Source: Bdellovibrionales bacterium | GTDB lineage: Bacteria > Bdellovibrionota > Bdellovibrionia > Bdellovibrionales > UBA1609 | Direction: 5' to 3' | Assembly (NCBI GenBank): GCA_026713205.1 | Contig: JAPOOY010000291.1 | Location: 1 to 8,546, forward strand | Length of the DNA stretch: 8,546 bases | Shown: positions 1-8,546 of the stretch, piece by piece | Numbering within the stretch: the first letter of the stretch is position 1 | How the letters are laid out: every line of letters begins with the position of its first letter | Position numbers and translations under genes: made by a program | Notes under the pieces: generated by a model | What the model was told of the DNA's origin: nothing | The model's input: only the letters and a program-made list of their open reading frames with translations | The model's database searches: none

Positions 1-466
1 ACCTGAGAGAGCCATTTAAATCCAATCGCCAGCGGCAGTGAGGAAGAGCCTGGCTACCTTCTTGTAATTTTTTAATTTGGTTTTGAAATCCTTTGGGCTG
101 AACTTTTACTTTTATAATCCGGTAGCCTGCCTCCTCCACCTGCTCCCAATGGGAAAAAGAGCTGACATCCTCAATCAGGAAATGGCTGTCAGGAATTTTC
201 AAGCCATAAAACAAACTTCGGTTTTCTTTTCGGGCCAGAGCATCACAAAGAGCGATCTTTTTTAATTGAGAAAGACGAGCGCTTTCTTTTCCCTTTCTAA
301 AATCCTCCAACTGCTTTTCCAGTGACTTCTCCCCAAACCGAGGCCAGGGAAGAAAATCCGCATAACCCTTCAAATCCGGCTGAAACTCAAACAAGAGTAA
401 GACGCCCTGAAGAAAGCTGGATCTATTCTTAAATTCCAGTTGATAAGGGCTGATATAAACCTTCAT
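1..466 (-). CDS. menC: o-succinylbenzoate synthase (MenC-like, enolase superfamily), N-terminal part, truncated by the window edge
   Basis: The gene reads leftwards from ATG 466-464 and is open to the edge, giving 155 visible residues. The start MKVYISPYQLEF, the GYADFLPWP segment near residues 34-42 and the spacing that follows fit the N-terminal capping domain of enolase-superfamily OSBS proteins. At 119-121 is KVK, the Lys-x-Lys pair whose second lysine is the catalytic base in OSBS. At 147-151 is RLDLN, the first metal-binding Asp (Asp149). The other metal ligands lie beyond the edge. The family converts SHCHC to o-succinylbenzoate in menaquinone synthesis. No clear Shine-Dalgarno precedes the ATG. 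The first codons and the upstream DNA are duplicated at 1691-1706 and beyond. A related dipeptide epimerase or other muconate-subgroup enzyme is possible, since the discriminating C-terminal half is missing. Confidence 0.72.
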   Translation of the reverse strand, partial: MKVYISPYQLEFKNRSSFLQGVLLLFEFQPDLKGYADFLPWPRFGEKSLEKQLEDFRKGKESARLSQLKKIALCDALARKENRSLFYGLKIPDSHFLIEDVSSFSHWEQVEEAGYRIIKVKVQPKGFQNQIKKLQEGSQALPHCRWRLDLNGSLR

Positions 467-547
467 AAAAACCAAGATACACCAATTTAATAAGAAATTT
501 TAATTGATTATTGCCCGACTTAAACAAAGCAACAGTAAAACTTTCCT

Positions 548-572
548 AAAAGAGTGAATTTTTTTCTCTTTT
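548..572. promoter_or_regulatory. Conserved inverted repeat AAAAGAG/CTCTTTT (copy A)
   Basis: A perfect 7-bp dyad, AAAAGAG (548-554) and CTCTTTT (566-572), has an 11-nt T-rich centre. It lies about 13 bp upstream of the candidate -35 element. The same dyad with the same spacer occurs in copy B (1789-1813). It could be an operator or a transcribed hairpin. Function is not known; only the symmetry and its conservation are seen. Confidence 0.4.
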
Positions 573-584
573 CCTGTAAAGACA

Positions 585-611
585 TTGACACTCTTTCTTT
601 CTTAAGATAAT
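585..611 (+). promoter_or_regulatory. Candidate sigma70-type promoter of the first winged-helix repeat gene
   Basis: A perfect TTGACA (585-590) is followed after 15 bp by GATAAT (606-611). The spacer is shorter than the ideal 17 bp, so the exact -10 is uncertain (TAATGA at 17 bp is an alternative). The equivalent site in copy B reads TTGAAA-15-GCTAAT, a weaker match. Confidence 0.4.
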
Positions 612-679
612 GAAAGACAGAATCTATATGTAAGAACCTTCAGAAAGAGAGAGGAAGAGAGGAAATTTAGAAGATGGAT

Positions 680-1327
680 ATGAAAAAGAAAAAAATTCTT
701 ATTTTATGGGGTTTGCTCTTTATGAGCCTGTCCCCTGTATCTCAAGCGGTGAAGGAAGAATGTAACCCTTTCCTTTTTCAAACAGCAGAACAAGAGGAAC
801 AAACTCATAGGATTTGGTGGATAGAGAAAAGAAGAGACTTTCAAACAGCAGAACAAGAGGAGCAAACACACAGGGGAAGAGGTATTGAGTTGAGAGAGAG
901 GAGGAAAGAGAAGGTCTTCGCTTTGATTAGAGATAATGAAGAGAGAGATATAGGAAGAGGAATCCTAGTTAGAATTACAGGTTGGTCAGAATACATAATA
1001 TATCAAATAATTACCGAATTAATACAGGAACAGAAAGTAATAAGAGTGTTTAGAGGCCCTAATACTTTCTATTCTGTTTTTAAAAAAGGAGAAACTCCTG
1101 TTAGCCGCGAGGAACAAAAAAAACAGAGAAAAGAAAGGGTCTTCGCTTTGATTAGAGATAGTGGGCATATAACAGTAAAAGACTTAATTAAAATTACAGA
1201 TTGGCCAGAATCCAGAGTATATCAACTAGTTGCCGAGTTAGAACAGGAACAGAAAGTGATAAGAGTGAGAAAATACGGAATTCATTGGATGTGGTTTCTA
1301 CAGGAGAACACTCTTCCGGCTAAATAA
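680..1327 (+). CDS. Exported protein with tandem winged-helix-like modules, paralog A (shortened, probably decaying)
   Basis: This 215-residue product matches no family I can name. Residues 1-23 form a Sec signal peptide: lysine-rich start, hydrophobic core ILILWGLLFMSL, likely cleavage after VSQA. A single cysteine follows at 28. A 12-residue segment, FQTAEQEEQTHR, occurs twice with a 21-residue period (33-44 and 54-65). Two helix-rich modules follow (about 76-138 and 151-208). Each has VFALIRD, a GWSE or DWPE turn before a helix like VYQLVAEL, then EQKVIRV resembling a wing strand. This pattern resembles winged helix-turn-helix folds; that is an inference. The start at 680 is preferred over ATG 674 because the upstream DNA aligns without gaps to the start of paralog B and leaves AGAAG at 6 nt. 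The stop is followed by a frameshifted further module, so the gene has probably lost its C-terminus. Confidence 0.7.
   Translation: MKKKKILILWGLLFMSLSPVSQAVKEECNPFLFQTAEQEEQTHRIWWIEKRRDFQTAEQEEQTHRGRGIELRERRKEKVFALIRDNEERDIGRGILVRITGWSEYIIYQIITELIQEQKVIRVFRGPNTFYSVFKKGETPVSREEQKKQRKERVFALIRDSGHITVKDLIKITDWPESRVYQLVAELEQEQKVIRVRKYGIHWMWFLQENTLPAK
776..874 (+). repeat. In-frame 36-bp direct repeat encoding FQTAEQEEQTHR
   Basis: Copies at 776-811 and 839-874 differ at three bases and are 63 bp apart, so the reading frame is kept. Paralog B lacks this insertion, which indicates that it arose after the gene duplication. Confidence 0.85.
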
Positions 1328-1503
1328 AAGGTTTTGAATTTAATTAGATATTCTGAACCTATAAAGATAGAAGATATAGTTAAAATTATAGGTTGGTCAG
1401 AAACCACAGTATATATAAAATAATTACCGAATTAGAACTTGAACAGAAAGTGATGAGAGTGATTGAAAACGATGGTTCCTATTATAAGGCGCTTTTTTTA
1501 TGA
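1328..1503 (+). pseudogene. Decayed further winged-helix-like module of paralog A
   Basis: Directly after the TAA of paralog A the same frame continues as KVLNLIRYSEPIKIEDIV then KIIGWSETTVY, a clear match to the preceding modules. It then stops at a TAA. A shift of frame at about 1415-1422 restores IITELELEQKVMRV and ends at TGA 1501-1503. The gene therefore once had another module, lost through a nonsense codon at 1325-1327 and a small insertion: TATATAAAATAATTACC here against TATCAAATAATTACC in the first module. Confidence 0.8.
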
Positions 1504-1603
1504 CTAAATTAAAATCCCAAAAATAACTTTTCTCTCACCTGCGTACTAACTGAATCCGATCTGGAGATATTACTTCTCAACAGAGGTTCAAATCAATATT
1601 TAG
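1504..1603. other. Unassigned spacer between the decayed module and the rho remnant
   Basis: About 100 bp show no gene, RNA or hairpin that I can support. The last 25 bases (about 1587-1611) resemble the DNA just beyond the rho stop codon (around 2936-2957), so the right end belongs to the duplicated rho flank. The rest shows no match within the window. Confidence 0.5.
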
Positions 1604-1658
1604 TTACTCATACTATTCATAAAACCCTTGTTGGTTTTAGCTGATTACTATCTACAAC
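1604..1658 (-). pseudogene. Remnant of the rho 3' end left by tandem duplication
   Basis: Read on the minus strand, this encodes SAKTNKGFMNSMSN and a stop at 1606-1604. The intact rho ends [14 protein letters not shown]. Further into rho the remnant continues with CTATCTACAAC (1648-1658), matching CTATCCACAAC at 3021-3031 after loss of about 25 bp. It has no start, no upstream rho body and no function that can be supported. Confidence 0.88.
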
Positions 1659-1660
1659 TC

Positions 1661-1706
1661 CTCTTTTCAAATCCTCTAGTCGCTTTCCCACTGATATAAA
1701 CCTTCA
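1661..1706 (-). pseudogene. Remnant of the menC 5' end with an internal deletion
   Basis: On the minus strand the sequence begins ATG AAG GTT TAT ATC, the same MKVYI as menC. It then jumps to DNA resembling the menC region around 290-327 (GGAAAAGCAGTTGGAGG in menC, GGGAAAGCGACTAGAGG here). About 120 bp between these parts are missing. Together with the adjoining rho remnant it marks the duplication junction near 1659-1662. Confidence 0.7.
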
Positions 1707-1788
1707 TAAAAACCAAGATACACCAATTTAATAAGAAATTTTAATTGATTATTGCCCTGCTTAAACAGAACAATAGTAAGATTTTCCT

Positions 1789-1813
1789 AAAAGAGTGAAT
1801 TTTTTTCTCTTTT
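1789..1813. promoter_or_regulatory. Conserved inverted repeat AAAAGAG/CTCTTTT (copy B)
   Basis: The same dyad as in copy A, with identical arms (1789-1795 and 1807-1813) and an identical spacer, upstream of paralog B. Conservation may reflect only the recent duplication. Confidence 0.38.
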
Positions 1814-1825
1814 CCTGTAAAGAAA

Positions 1826-1852
1826 TTGAAATTTTTTCTTTTTTAAGCTAAT
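1826..1852 (+). promoter_or_regulatory. Candidate promoter of paralog B
   Basis: TTGAAA (1826-1831), a 15-bp spacer and GCTAAT (1847-1852) sit where copy A has TTGACA-15-GATAAT. It is a weaker match and may be less active. Confidence 0.28.
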
Positions 1853-1904
1853 GAAAGACAAACATTAGGGCCTTTAGAAAGAAGGGGAAATTTAGGAAAT
1901 TAAT

Positions 1905-2816
1905 ATGAAAAAGGAAAAACTTCTCATTTTATGGGGCTTGCTCTTTATGAGCCTGTCCCCTGTATCTCAAGCGGCAAAGGAAGAATGTGACCCCTCTCTC
2001 TTTAGACAAAAAAAAGAAGAGGTTTTGAGGTTGTTAAGAGAAAATCCGCGTATAAACAGGAAAGAACTGGCGAAAAACATCAATGAACCAACAAGCACAG
2101 TACATAAAATACTTTTAGAAATAAGAAAAGAAAGAAAAGAAAAAGTCGTGGAGTTGATTGGAAAACATAAGGGGATAACAATAATACAACTAATGGAAAT
2201 TATTGGAGTATCAGAAAAGCTAATAAATACCCTAATTCACGAATTAAAAAATGAAGGACGAATAGAGAGAGCTTCAGGAAGAGAATATAATGATTTTTAT
2301 CGTATTCTTGAAGAAGGAGAAATCCCCTCTAGCTTGGAAGAACAACAAAACCAGAAAACGGAAAGAAGAAAACAGAGAGAACAAAAAAAAGAAAGAATCG
2401 TGGAGTTGATTGGAAAATATAAAGGAATAACAATCAGAGAACTGGCAGAAAATATTGAAGTGTCAGAGGGATTAATAAGTAAAATGATTGCCGAATTAAA
2501 AGATAAAGAACGAATAGAGAGAGTGGGGGGAAGCACAAATGATGGCTTTTATCGTATTCTTGAAGAAGGAGAAACCCCCCTTAGCTTGGAAGAACATAGA
2601 AAACAGGAAGAAGAAAATAGAAAGAAGAAAGCAAAAAAAGTCGTGGAGTTAATTAAAAAACATAAGGGGATAACAATAAAAGAGCTGGCGGAAAATATGA
2701 GAGTGTCAGAAAAGGCAATGGGTAGAATAATTCGCAAATTAAAAGATGAAAAACAAATAGAAAGAGTGGGTGGATCTGGATCTAGTGGTTTTTATCGTGC
2801 TCTTGAAAAAAGTTGA
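1905..2816 (+). CDS. Exported protein with tandem winged-helix-like modules, paralog B (intact)
   Basis: The 303-residue product belongs to no family I can name. AGGA at 1894-1897 lies 7 nt before the ATG. Residues 1-23 are a signal peptide nearly identical to that of paralog A (core LLILWGLLFMSL, cleavage likely after VSQA). The only cysteine is Cys28, in the shared motif KEEC. Residues 35-75 form a first helix-turn-helix-like unit (EVLRLLRENPRINRKELA, then STVHKILLEI). Three longer modules start near 76, 161 and 243. Each has (V/I)VELI, KGITI, an (N/I)xxVSE turn, a recognition-like helix, then RIERV and FYR(I/A)LE, resembling a wing. Linkers repeat E(I/T)PxSLEE and are rich in Lys, Arg and Glu. 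The pattern resembles MarR- or LexA-type winged helices, which are normally cytoplasmic. A membrane-anchored regulator is an alternative to a secreted protein. Confidence 0.75.
   Translation: MKKEKLLILWGLLFMSLSPVSQAAKEECDPSLFRQKKEEVLRLLRENPRINRKELAKNINEPTSTVHKILLEIRKERKEKVVELIGKHKGITIIQLMEIIGVSEKLINTLIHELKNEGRIERASGREYNDFYRILEEGEIPSSLEEQQNQKTERRKQREQKKERIVELIGKYKGITIRELAENIEVSEGLISKMIAELKDKERIERVGGSTNDGFYRILEEGETPLSLEEHRKQEEENRKKKAKKVVELIKKHKGITIKELAENMRVSEKAMGRIIRKLKDEKQIERVGGSGSSGFYRALEKS
2130..2813 (+). repeat. Three tandem module repeats (about 245-255 bp) within paralog B
   Basis: Units start near 2130, 2385 and 2631. Aligned landmarks GTCGTGGAGTTGATT (2145), ATCGTGGAGTTGATT (2397) and GTCGTGGAGTTAATT (2640) are 252 and 243 bp apart. 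TTTTTATCGTATTCTTGAAG-like blocks recur at about 2294, 2546 and 2789. Units within this gene resemble each other more than the units of paralog A. Confidence 0.88.
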
Positions 2817-4789: not shown

Positions 4790-4876
4790 ATGAAAAAGAA
4801 ACCTGTTATCAAAAAAACAACAAACAATTTTATAATGTATAAAAGCAGCTCTTATATAAACGATAAAACGATATGA
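4790..4876 (+). CDS. 28-codon leader peptide overlapping the start of the downstream gene
   Basis: The ORF has a good Shine-Dalgarno AAGGGAG (4774-4780) 9 nt before its ATG. It encodes a small basic peptide beginning MKKKPVIKKTTNN. Its TGA (4874-4876) overlaps the ATG of the next gene (4873-4875) as ATGA, a classical arrangement for translational coupling. The downstream gene has no Shine-Dalgarno of its own, so ribosomes finishing this ORF may initiate there. No homology is recognised. A TATAAT at 4831-4836 could instead be a promoter inside the ORF, in which case the peptide would not be on the main transcript. Confidence 0.5.
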   Translation: MKKKPVIKKTTNNFIMYKSSSYINDKTI

Positions 4877-5790
4877 AAAAAACTTACTTGACTGCTGTCA
4901 TTTTTCTAATCTCCTGCCTTTGTTATAAAGGCAATGTAGAGGCCGCGACACAACCTCACCCTTCTTTTGTCATTATTTTTGATGCGCTTGAAACGGGAGA
5001 TAGAAAGACTTTCCAGAAAGAACTAAAAAGATTACTCCTTCAAGGCTCCTTTAAGGAATTTGTAGATGTTATGACAAGCGCCACCCCTTCCGGTGAAACA
5101 ATCTTTCATGGTTTCGCAACAGTTAAAAAAAACAAAAAAGGCTTTGCGCAGGATTTACAGACTCTCTTGCAACTGCTGTCTTTTCCCATGAGAGAAGTCC
5201 CCAAACCAAACTCTTACACCTTGGCCGGAGTAAGAATCTCCATTTCAAACCTGGAAGAAAAAACCATTACCCAAGCTTTTCTGGCTGGAGATTTGCTGTC
5301 TGTGGCGCTTGAATTAGATAAGCTGAAAAAAGGGTCTGCCATTGATGCCCTATCTGTTATCCACGGAAAAACCTCTTCCGGAAAGACTTTTTATGGTTTG
5401 ATAGAAGATATTTTTAAAGCCTTTACCTCTCAAAATAAGTGGGAAGAAGTCCTAAGTGAAATCAATGAAGCCCAAACCACTTTTATCAATTTACCTTTCC
5501 AGGAAAATAATGAAGGATTAAAACCCATTGAAATGGCTGACAAAAAAAGAAATAAAAGAATCTATAAAGTTTTTCAGAACAAACATACCCTGCAAAAAAA
5601 CAACACCCCACGAAAACTGGTAAAAACCACAGTAGGTTTTCTGTCAGCCGCATTGGCGGCATGGTGGATCACTGATTTTGATGTTTATGAACTCCTGACG
5701 GTTGTCACATCAGGAACATTCGGAGTCGTAGTGGGAGATAAATGTTATAATGGCTTTCAAAAACTCCGTTCCGGCAGAAAAGGAAATTGA
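4873..5790 (+). CDS. Exported protein with diverged ankyrin-like modules and C-terminal membrane segment
   Basis: The 305-residue product is of unknown function. The N-terminus is a signal sequence, with likely cleavage after VEA (residue 24). A lipobox-like LISC (12-15) makes a lipoprotein possible. Two similar modules follow, offset by 96-97 residues. In 36-79, FDALETGD, then KELKRLL, GS and TPSGETIFHG are seen. In 135-175, QAFLAGD, then LELDKLK, GS and TSSGKTFYG correspond. Residues 213-234, EGLKPIEMADKKRNKRIYKVF, resemble the terminal helix pair of ankyrin repeats, so an ankyrin-type solenoid is plausible but diverged. Residues about 250-266 and 271-288 are hydrophobic, either one hairpin or two membrane helices. 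A basic tail RSGRKGN ends the protein. A strong terminator lies 46 bp downstream, so the gene is the last of its transcript. Confidence 0.72.
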   Translation: MKKTYLTAVIFLISCLCYKGNVEAATQPHPSFVIIFDALETGDRKTFQKELKRLLLQGSFKEFVDVMTSATPSGETIFHGFATVKKNKKGFAQDLQTLLQLLSFPMREVPKPNSYTLAGVRISISNLEEKTITQAFLAGDLLSVALELDKLKKGSAIDALSVIHGKTSSGKTFYGLIEDIFKAFTSQNKWEEVLSEINEAQTTFINLPFQENNEGLKPIEMADKKRNKRIYKVFQNKHTLQKNNTPRKLVKTTVGFLSAALAAWWITDFDVYELLTVVTSGTFGVVVGDKCYNGFQKLRSGRKGN

Positions 5791-5836
5791 TGTGCTTTCA
5801 TGAAAAAACTCAGTATCTAAACTAGAGGAGATATTC

Positions 5837-5862
5837 CTTCAACTTGAATTTTGAAGTTTTTT
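5837..5862 (+). terminator. Intrinsic terminator of the ankyrin-like gene
   Basis: CTTCAA (5837-5842) and TTGAAG (5851-5856) form a 6-bp stem with an 8-nt loop, followed at once by six T residues (5857-5862). It is oriented to end the transcript of the preceding gene. Confidence 0.75.
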
Positions 5863-5900
5863 AAACAAGAGCAAGCTTACACCCTTCATGAAGTATATAA

Positions 5901-5978
5901 GGTTAAAAAGTTCGGAGATGCGTGTTACCATAAAGCGGCTGATAGCCGCTATTGTGTCAAGCCGCATTCACTTTTCAT
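5901..5978. repeat. Dispersed palindromic repeat, copy 1
   Basis: About 78 bp align to 8468-8546 with roughly three quarters identity. The core hairpin is AGCGGCT-GAT-AGCCGCT (5934-5950). Outside it CATA and TGTG can pair, ATGCG pairs with CGCAT, and AAAAGT at the left pairs with ACTTTT at the right end. The element lies between the terminator of the upstream gene and the promoter of the radical SAM gene. It could be a REP- or MITE-like element or a transcribed structure. Confidence 0.8.
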
Positions 5979-8398: not shown

Positions 8399-8404
8399 TT
8401 CATA

Positions 8405-8410
8405 CTCCTT
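8405..8410 (-). promoter_or_regulatory. Shine-Dalgarno site of the VKOR-DsbA gene
   Basis: AAGGAG on the minus strand lies 6 nt before the ATG at 8398 and decides that start over an out-of-frame ATG at 8403 that stops after two codons. Confidence 0.85.
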
Positions 8411-8467
8411 CTGTTAAAATTTTGTAGTTTTCAGCAAGGTTAAGATAAGCCCTTAAGAGGAGAATAG

Positions 8468-8546
8468 GGTCCAAAAGTTCAAACATGCGTTTTGCCACAA
8501 AGCGACTTTCAGTCGCTACTGTGTCAAAGCCGAACTCACTTTTGAC
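8468..8546. repeat. Dispersed palindromic repeat, copy 2 (at the window edge)
   Basis: It matches 5901-5978. The core hairpin is AGCGACT-TTC-AGTCGCT (8501-8517), with outer CACA/TGTG pairing. It begins about 70 bp upstream of the VKOR-DsbA start and may extend beyond the window. Like copy 1 it lies upstream of a gene start. Confidence 0.8.

What the first reader, a model, noticed from the sequence alone, without database searches (positions are those of the whole stretch)
680..2816. Exported proteins built from tandem winged-helix-like modules
Both paralogs pair a convincing Sec signal peptide with repeated modules that look like winged helix-turn-helix DNA-binding domains, a fold normally found in the cytoplasm. 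The bodies are very rich in Lys and Arg. Possible roles are a secreted nucleic-acid-binding protein, an effector acting on a host or prey nucleoid, an extracellular DNA binder, or a membrane-tethered regulator. This is the best candidate here for an undescribed family.
Basis: partly seen in the sequence, partly recalled or inferred. Interest (0 to 1): 0.8.

Follow-up and report, generated by a model that had tools for sequence, protein, structure and literature searches.

The report
Exported winged-helix arrays without their helicase
Two neighbouring genes of a bacterium, apparently a relative of Bdellovibrio, encode proteins predicted to be exported and built from repeated DNA-binding-type modules; they share their export signal and modules with a predicted-exported helicase of the same genome, and they likely bind the DNA or RNA of a cell that the bacterium preys on or lives in.

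Summary
ORFs 674-1327 (start probably 680) and 1905-2816 begin with near-identical Sec-type signal peptides; AlphaFold2 gives the second three winged helices plus a wingless HTH. ORF1 matches its residues 1-44 and 576-670 and lacks the core between: the window pair are helicase-less members. The helicase occurs in 7 of 98 genomes searched, all in the window's family. Of 86 relatives with at least 110 residues before Walker A, 67 carry an N-terminal hydrophobic segment, against 1 of 74 distant SF2 helicases. Their C-termini show internal repeats in 89 of 92 testable cases; types include winged helix, INT_rpt and, in a few, sigma-32-like. In 18 INT-type arrays variation peaks at two positions, as a recognition code would. 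I propose exported nucleic-acid-binding effectors acting in prey or host cells; export, target and binding are untested. The paper searches listed no such exported helicases.

The parts
450..619 (+). Upstream block of ORF1, duplicated upstream of ORF2
   Evidence: 92% identical to 1691-1860; 536-800 also aligns to the region upstream of and including the start of the helicase gene C168 (69%); a TTGA(C/A)A...GATAAT-like block is shared in an alignment of four genes, but the generic promoter scan found no excess
680..1327 (+). ORF1: predicted exported protein with two winged-helix modules; helicase-less relative of C168
   Evidence: the ORF listing (first ATG at 674); matches residues 1-44 and 576-670 of the C168 protein, core absent
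680..748 (+). Signal peptide of ORF1 (cleavage after SQA is my assignment)
   Evidence: rule-based test; 94% DNA identity to 1905-1973
776..874 (+). Duplicated FQTAEQEEQTHR segment (776-811 and 839-874) at the place where the helicase core is missing
   Evidence: direct repeat D8, 92%; alignment
899..1081 (+). ORF1 winged-helix module 1
   Evidence: 56% identity over 97 aa to the C168 module region
1130..1300 (+). ORF1 winged-helix module 2
   Evidence: DUF7343 3.7e-7; 41% over 69 aa to the C168 module
1322..1503 (+). Decayed third module after the ORF1 stop codon (frame broken)
   Evidence: repeat families D2 and D7; three-frame translation shows module remnants in two frames
1691..1860 (+). 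Upstream block of ORF2 (copy of 450-619)
1905..2816 (+). ORF2: predicted exported protein with one HTH and three full winged-helix modules
   Evidence: Pfam HTH_24 in 4 stretches; AlphaFold2 model, mean pLDDT 76.6, pTM 0.41
1905..1973 (+). Signal peptide of ORF2
   Evidence: rule-based test; helix 3-17 and low-confidence stretch 14-27 in the model
1992..2165 (+). ORF2 module 1: HTH without wing
   Evidence: helices 30-46, 52-58, 63-87, no strands; HTH_24 36-70
2130..2306 (+). ORF2 module 2: winged helix
2379..2558 (+). ORF2 module 3: winged helix
2622..2801 (+). ORF2 module 4: winged helix

Best explanation
The window holds two tandem copies of a gene whose products are predicted to be exported by Sec and to consist mainly of tandem winged-helix modules; they share signal peptide, upstream region and modules with an SF2 helicase of the same genome that is likewise predicted to be exported, and they likely act by binding nucleic acid inside a prey or host cell. 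Shown from sequence: the shared N-terminus, the HTH modules, the missing helicase core in ORF1, the shared upstream region, and internal repeats in the C-termini of most helicase relatives tested. Predicted: the winged-helix fold and cleavage of the signal. Inferred: Sec delivers the protein to the periplasm, a secretin-type system releases it, and in the recipient cell the array grips DNA or RNA; members with the helicase would remodel or translocate along it, members without it (this pair) would only bind and block.
For: Own-genome paralogue C168: same N-terminus, SF2 helicase (Helicase_C 1.6e-15, ResIII 1.9e-12), winged-helix C-terminus. ORF1 matches its residues 1-44 (55%) and 576-670 (56%) only. 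The export signal is a family trait: strict rule 43 of 86 relatives with at least 110 aa before Walker A, against 0 of 73 distant SF2 helicases at their first start (6 of 73 at any of the first six starts); hydrophobic 13-mer within the first 60 residues 67 of 86, against 1 of 74 controls, and 2 of 86 in an internal stretch of the same proteins. The same test on 13 loci from the 7 genomes passes in 11, at the first or an early start; several of these are the same proteins as in the 86, so this is not independent. Motifs I, II, III and VI are kept in the 18 aligned helicases. C-termini have internal repeats above shuffles in 89 of 92. INT-type repeats: 18 arrays, 101 units, positions -20 and -5 differ in 74% and 69% of within-array pairs, median column 28%; in 5000 label shuffles no column reached 69% (highest 66%). 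Window-type modules: exposed recognition-helix positions differ in 87% of pairs, buried ones 35%, others 58% (12 modules). One branch carries a sigma-32-like domain (118 bits, residues 621-894 of P0005). Four secretin matches in the own genome.
Against: No secretion or binding data of any kind. Signal peptides were judged by rules written here, not by a trained predictor; 43 of 86 fail the strict rule and 19 of 86 the hydrophobic test (by eye some start too late, others look like signals the rule misses, e.g. P0055). Exposed positions elsewhere in the winged helix also vary (columns 11 and 17 at 0.88 and 0.92), so variability in the recognition helix is weak evidence for changing DNA targets. 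The 18 INT-type arrays include close paralogues (e.g. P0012 and P0013) and were chosen by a motif. ORF1 and C180 show decay, so some copies may be dying genes. Array-only members are rare: beside the window pair only P0002 and P0003 came out of the roughly 8000 candidates scored in each of two searches, plus C180 and a one-module relative in G002. The own genome's 5 ankyrin matches are no more than in larger relatives (0-5).
Confidence: 0.45

Rival explanations
1. Membrane-tethered or periplasmic regulators: the N-terminal segment stays as an anchor and the modules bind the bacterium's own DNA or incoming DNA at the envelope (uptake, defence or biofilm DNA).
For: Winged-helix modules resemble MarR/IclR/ROK regulators; PADLOC models for CARF/Csa3 regulators hit the modules.
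Against: A Lys-rich n-region should put the body outside the inner membrane whether or not the signal is cleaved (positive-inside rule, general knowledge); the wider family keeps a complete ATP-dependent helicase behind the signal, and the periplasm has no ATP (general knowledge); PADLOC hits cover only the generic wHTH or RecA folds.
Confidence: 0.2
2. Extracellular or biofilm DNA-binding proteins that scaffold or scavenge DNA outside the cell, with no entry into another cell.
For: Predicted exported, basic (pI 9.1-9.4); tandem modules would give multivalent DNA binding.
Against: Does not explain the helicase motor, the sigma-like domain or the focused variability at two repeat positions in the relatives.
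Confidence: 0.15
3. The N-terminal segment is not a working signal and the proteins are cytoplasmic DNA-binding or helicase proteins.
For: The recognisable domains (helicase, sigma-like, wHTH) are normally cytoplasmic.
Against: Hydrophobic N-terminus in 67 of 86 relatives, against 1 of 74 control helicases; also in both helicase loci of the 4.1 Mb genome G035.
Confidence: 0.1
4. Dying gene copies without function, left by duplication of a helicase gene.
For: Decayed third module after ORF1; C180 copy with in-frame stops; C148 copy with only part of the helicase; ORF1 lacks the core.
Against: ORF2 is an intact 303-aa frame with three well-predicted winged helices; P0002 and P0003 are intact array-only members elsewhere; the upstream block is 92% kept while the bodies diverged.
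Confidence: 0.1

Closest known systems
TAL effectors (Xanthomonas, Ralstonia)
   Same: Secreted repeat arrays; repeats that differ mainly at a few positions (recalled for TALEs; seen here in the INT-type relatives)
   Different: Enter by type III secretion (recalled), not Sec; tandem 34-residue repeats (start of abstract of PMC6461438 in the listing); no helicase; window modules are winged helices
Nucleomodulins and secreted RNA-binding proteins (e.g. the Listeria protein of PMC6907008; only the start of its abstract seen)
   Same: Bacterial secreted proteins that act on nucleic acids
   Different: No winged-helix array or SF2 helicase mentioned in what was seen
MarR/IclR/ROK-type winged-helix regulators
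   Different: Those have one such domain and a ligand or dimer domain (general knowledge); here three or four in tandem behind a signal peptide
SelB C-terminal winged helices and the RNA polymerase III chain 8iue_P (RPC6, chain name recalled)
   Same: Tandem winged helices; the two best Foldseek matches (E 4.0e-7 and 6.3e-7)
   Different: TM-scores about 0.2, so the arrangement differs or is not well predicted; signal peptides not known for them (recalled)
SF2 helicases RadD, RIG-I-like, type III Res subunit
   Same: Helicase fold and motifs of the relatives
   Different: N-terminal hydrophobic segment in only 1 of 74 control SF2 loci, and that one marginal

Membership tests
Winged-helix DNA-binding domains (HTH_24/MarR clan) | Three helices plus beta-wing, profile match above the curated cut-off | tested here: met
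   ORF2 HTH_24 72.2 bits (cut-off 21.9) and a model with three full winged helices; ORF1 DUF7343 30.3 bits (cut-off 27.6) but HTH_24 16.2, below cut-off, and no model
Family of predicted-exported SF2 helicases with C-terminal repeats (defined here) | Shared signal peptide and mature N-terminus with a helicase member | tested here: met
   ORF1 residues 3-45 match C168 residues 1-44 at 55%, ORF2 residues 1-38 match at 59%
Family of predicted-exported SF2 helicases with C-terminal repeats (defined here) | Helicase core present | tested here: not met
   No helicase family among the Pfam hits shown for either ORF (for ORF2 the best 25 of 79 shown); core absent in the alignment. Hence 'helicase-less relatives', not helicases
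Sec-exported proteins | Positively charged n-region, hydrophobic core, A-x-A-like site | tested here: met
   Rule-based only
Sec-exported proteins | Actual export and cleavage | not testable with these tools
   Needs experiment
TAL effectors | About 34-residue repeats | tested here: not met
   ORF2 repeat spacing 252 and 243 nt, i.e. 84 and 81 aa
Z-alpha (Z-DNA binding) domains | Asn and Tyr in the recognition helix (recalled); Trp of the wing not tested | tested here: not met
   Module 2 aligns to Z-alpha at E 0.066 with Asn matched but His at the Tyr place; modules 3 and 4 have Ser/Ala and Gly/Arg there
Nucleomodulins | Reach the host nucleus and alter it | not testable with these tools
   No localisation data; host unknown
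Anti-phage defence proteins | Whole-protein match to a defence model | tested here: not met
   PADLOC hits of ORF2 and five helicase relatives cover only generic wHTH, RecA or sigma stretches

The most novel reading that the evidence does not exclude
A Bdellovibrionales lineage has evolved its own programmable effector system: a Sec signal peptide in front of interchangeable arrays (winged helix, INT_rpt-type repeats with one or two hypervariable contact residues per repeat, or a sigma-32-like domain), usually driven by an SF2 motor, exported to rewrite gene expression in prey or host cells. The window pair are the motor-free, blocking form.
Probability: 0.25. Interest if true: 0.95.

Novelty: categorically new. 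Interest (0 to 1): 0.78.

Why it matters
No exported helicase family with modular DNA- or RNA-recognition arrays appears in the titles and abstract starts listed by the paper searches. If the arrays bind in a sequence-dependent way, they would be a new class of secreted sequence reader beside TAL effectors, and would show that predatory or symbiotic Bdellovibrionota attack the nucleic acids of their partner with tailored proteins. It is directly testable: window ORF2 is small and its frame is intact.

Tried and rejected
Taken as a simple pair of unknown proteins: rejected after the C168 paralogue. Z-DNA binding by Z-alpha-like modules: rejected. Phage or mobile origin: the viral scan with the helicase alignment gave 36 loci, all weak (best 2e-11, 26%); ORF2 itself was not searched in the phage or plasmid collections. 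Defence system: only generic hits. Search of genome contigs with P0002 found nothing. PF14882 by profile in 58 related genomes rang in only 1 at E 1e-5, and not in the own genome, so my calling the repeats of C148 and C193 'INT-like' is by eye; 20 of the 120 helicase relatives listed carry PF14882 in their precomputed domains (my count; some domain lists are cut). NCBIfam names for the window's modules (GlpR, Sul7s etc.) are far below their cut-offs and were not used. The promoter scan showed no excess of sigma-70 sites (5 found, 6.4 expected); the shared upstream block rests on alignment only. The pattern found 14 modules; the two from P0017 and P0022 were left out, and most modules of those proteins and all of P0020 and P0033 were missed by the pattern. 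In one search the minus-strand loci were first read on the wrong strand; one search repeated them on the right one.
Full report
What is in the window. The window is contig C292 of a fragmented 1.5 Mb genome (302 contigs, 85% complete), GC 38%. Genes: part of an o-succinylbenzoate synthase, the two ORFs of the finding, Rho on the minus strand, a further ORF with a signal-like N-terminus (4873-5790), a radical SAM protein and a VKOR-DsbA fusion. ORF1 is 674-1327 (likely start 680), ORF2 is 1905-2816. The 170 bp block before each is 92% identical and the first 69 bp of coding sequence 94%, while the proteins share 41% over ORF2 residues 1-207, signal included: upstream region and signal peptide are kept, the bodies are not.

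Relatives in the own genome. The N-terminus recurs in four places: both window ORFs, C180 and C168. C180 is a winged-helix array broken by stops and cut by the contig end. C168 is 670 aa to the contig end: signal peptide, EEDCSPSLF, SF2 helicase, then a winged-helix module; contig C173 begins with more of the same module and may be its continuation (inference). ORF1 aligns to C168 at residues 1-44 (55%) and 576-670 (56% over 97 aa), with the core absent. The DNA from 536 to 800 also aligns to C168's upstream and start (69%), and a block with TTGA(C/A)A and GATAAT-like words is common to the four genes aligned. So the window genes are helicase-less relatives of a predicted-exported helicase. 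The helicase form is found in several genera of the family, whereas array-only forms were found only here, in congener G002 (one module) and on one unidentified contig, so loss of the core is the likelier direction (inference). Two further own-genome relatives: C193 (signal-like N-terminus, helicase, repeats) and C148 (signal-like N-terminus, part of the helicase, two INT-like repeats by eye).

The wider family. A protein search with C168 gave 125 relatives, 120 listed, from a capped set of candidates; the two with an organism name are Bdellovibrionales MAGs. Of 114 loci found in genome contigs, 80 were kept: the six strong ones are all Bdellovibrionales MAGs (bins IP30b, IP30a, RHO3), the other 74 are distant SF2 helicases at E 8e-10 or worse. 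Of 98 genomes searched (own included), 7 have the helicase, all in the window's family; two of these (G024, G041) match at only 27-30%. The strict signal rule is met by 43 of 86 relatives with at least 110 residues before Walker A (34 of 120 dropped; 8 of those also pass) and by 0 of 73 control SF2 helicases at their first start; 6 of 73 controls pass if any of six starts may be used. The plainer hydrophobic test gives 67 of 86 against 1 of 74. Of 13 loci in the seven genomes 11 pass at the first or an early start, and the two failures still have a short hydrophobic N-terminus by eye; several of these loci are the same proteins as in the 86. Helicase motifs are kept in the 18 aligned (invariant columns), and the AlphaFold2 model of C168 (pLDDT 77.6, pTM 0.69) matches RadD, MDA5 and LGP2.

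C-terminal repeats. Of 92 C-terminal regions of 120 aa or more, 89 have internal similarity above shuffles. Not all are regular arrays: the sigma-like P0005, P0007 and P0011 score low, and P0005 and P0011 show no period. Clear arrays run from 54 to 81 residues per unit in the examples printed. Types: winged helix (P0017, six HTH_24 stretches), INT_rpt (P0008, P0013), and a sigma-32-like domain in P0005 (118 bits to RpoH over 621-894). For INT-type arrays with at least four units (18 arrays, 101 units, chosen by a P[SA]xPxxxY motif, so those columns are fixed by choice; close paralogues included), within-array differences peak at -20 (0.74) and -5 (0.69), then -1 and -2 (0.57, 0.55), against a median of 0.28; in 5000 shuffles of column labels no column exceeded 0.66, and 91% of residues at -5 are polar or charged. 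In 12 winged-helix modules of the window type, exposed recognition-helix positions average 0.87, buried ones 0.35, others 0.58, and the wing tip 0.91-0.94; some other surface positions vary as much, so this is only suggestive.

Lifestyle. Flagellin was found in 0 of 6 of the window's genome, its three congeners and two more small genomes, and in 6 of 6 larger relatives (2.3-3.9 Mb); the four of the genus are only 85-89% complete. Ankyrin matches number 5, 9, 33 and 75 in the genus, the own genome's 5 being no more than in larger relatives (0-5). Four secretin matches are in the own genome. This points to a host-bound or prey-bound life of the genus. Two sponge Bdellovibrionota MAGs of 1.24 and 1.67 Mb lack motility genes, and one has 12 ankyrin domains (PMC9944714, passages read); 13 Bdellovibrionota MAGs came from reef sponges, the seven species including Rhopaloeides odorabile (PMC8163846, passages), which may be the source of the RHO3 bin (inference). 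A family UBA1609 of Bdellovibrionales in sludge keeps pili and adherence genes of Bdellovibrio (PMC10469934, passages); whether it is the window's family is unknown. Whether the window's organism lives in a sponge is unknown.

Mechanism. A signal peptide in front of an intact ATP-driven helicase makes sense if the protein ends in a cell with ATP and nucleic acid, that is prey or host. The sigma-32-like branch hints at bacterial RNA polymerase as a target, hence prey; the ankyrins of the genus hint at a eukaryotic host. I commit to nucleic-acid-binding effectors, with the window pair acting by binding alone. Export, delivery and binding are all untested.

Novelty. Searches for 'secreted helicase' (0 papers), Bdellovibrio or Bdellovibrionales with secreted helicase or DNA-binding terms, PF14882 (one paper, where the family is a table entry), nucleomodulin with helicase and Bdellovibrio with TAL effector showed nothing of this kind in the listed titles and abstract starts; the full texts in those lists were not read, and searches listed only part of what they found (15 of 111 and 8 of 18).

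Noticed in passing
window 5831-5975 and 8402-8546; L014:5872-6022: Dispersed intergenic repeat with a short palindrome (the two window copies match the L014 copy at 70% and 75%); a translation in L020 suggests a copy in the congener G002.
   Followed up: partly
window 4873-5790: Further predicted exported protein (305 aa, no Pfam hit; passes the signal rule); one relative at 31% in congener G001 and a weak one in C185 of the own genome.
   Followed up: partly
P0005, P0006, P0007, P0009, P0011, P0016, P0071, P0121: Eight helicase relatives list sigma-70 region 2 and/or 4 in their precomputed domains; P0005 matches RpoH over 621-894 with 118 bits. An exported sigma-like domain would be remarkable.
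   Followed up: partly
P0008, P0012, P0013, P0047, P0055, P0063 and others: INT_rpt-type arrays with two hypervariable positions per repeat, looking like a recognition code.
   Followed up: partly
L052, L055, L057 (G031:C223:3424-12872); P0060, P0069, P0074, P0077, P0086: Helicase paralogues in tandem: three on G031:C223; five listed proteins show the same longest-contig length of 276,999 bases.
   Followed up: no
P0003: The end of the signal peptide appears twice (SPASQGA, then PPVSQAAKEEC after an inserted stretch), as if the N-terminus had been partly duplicated.
   Followed up: no
L015:2742-3464 and L021:1809-3263: Two proteins of the genus end in a similar winged helix; the L015 one carries the RecG-type HATPase_c_4 domain. 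A possible source of the modules.
   Followed up: no
L020:4369-5223 (G002:C43): Congener protein of 284 aa with a signal-like N-terminus, a Cys and one C-terminal winged helix of the same type.
   Followed up: partly
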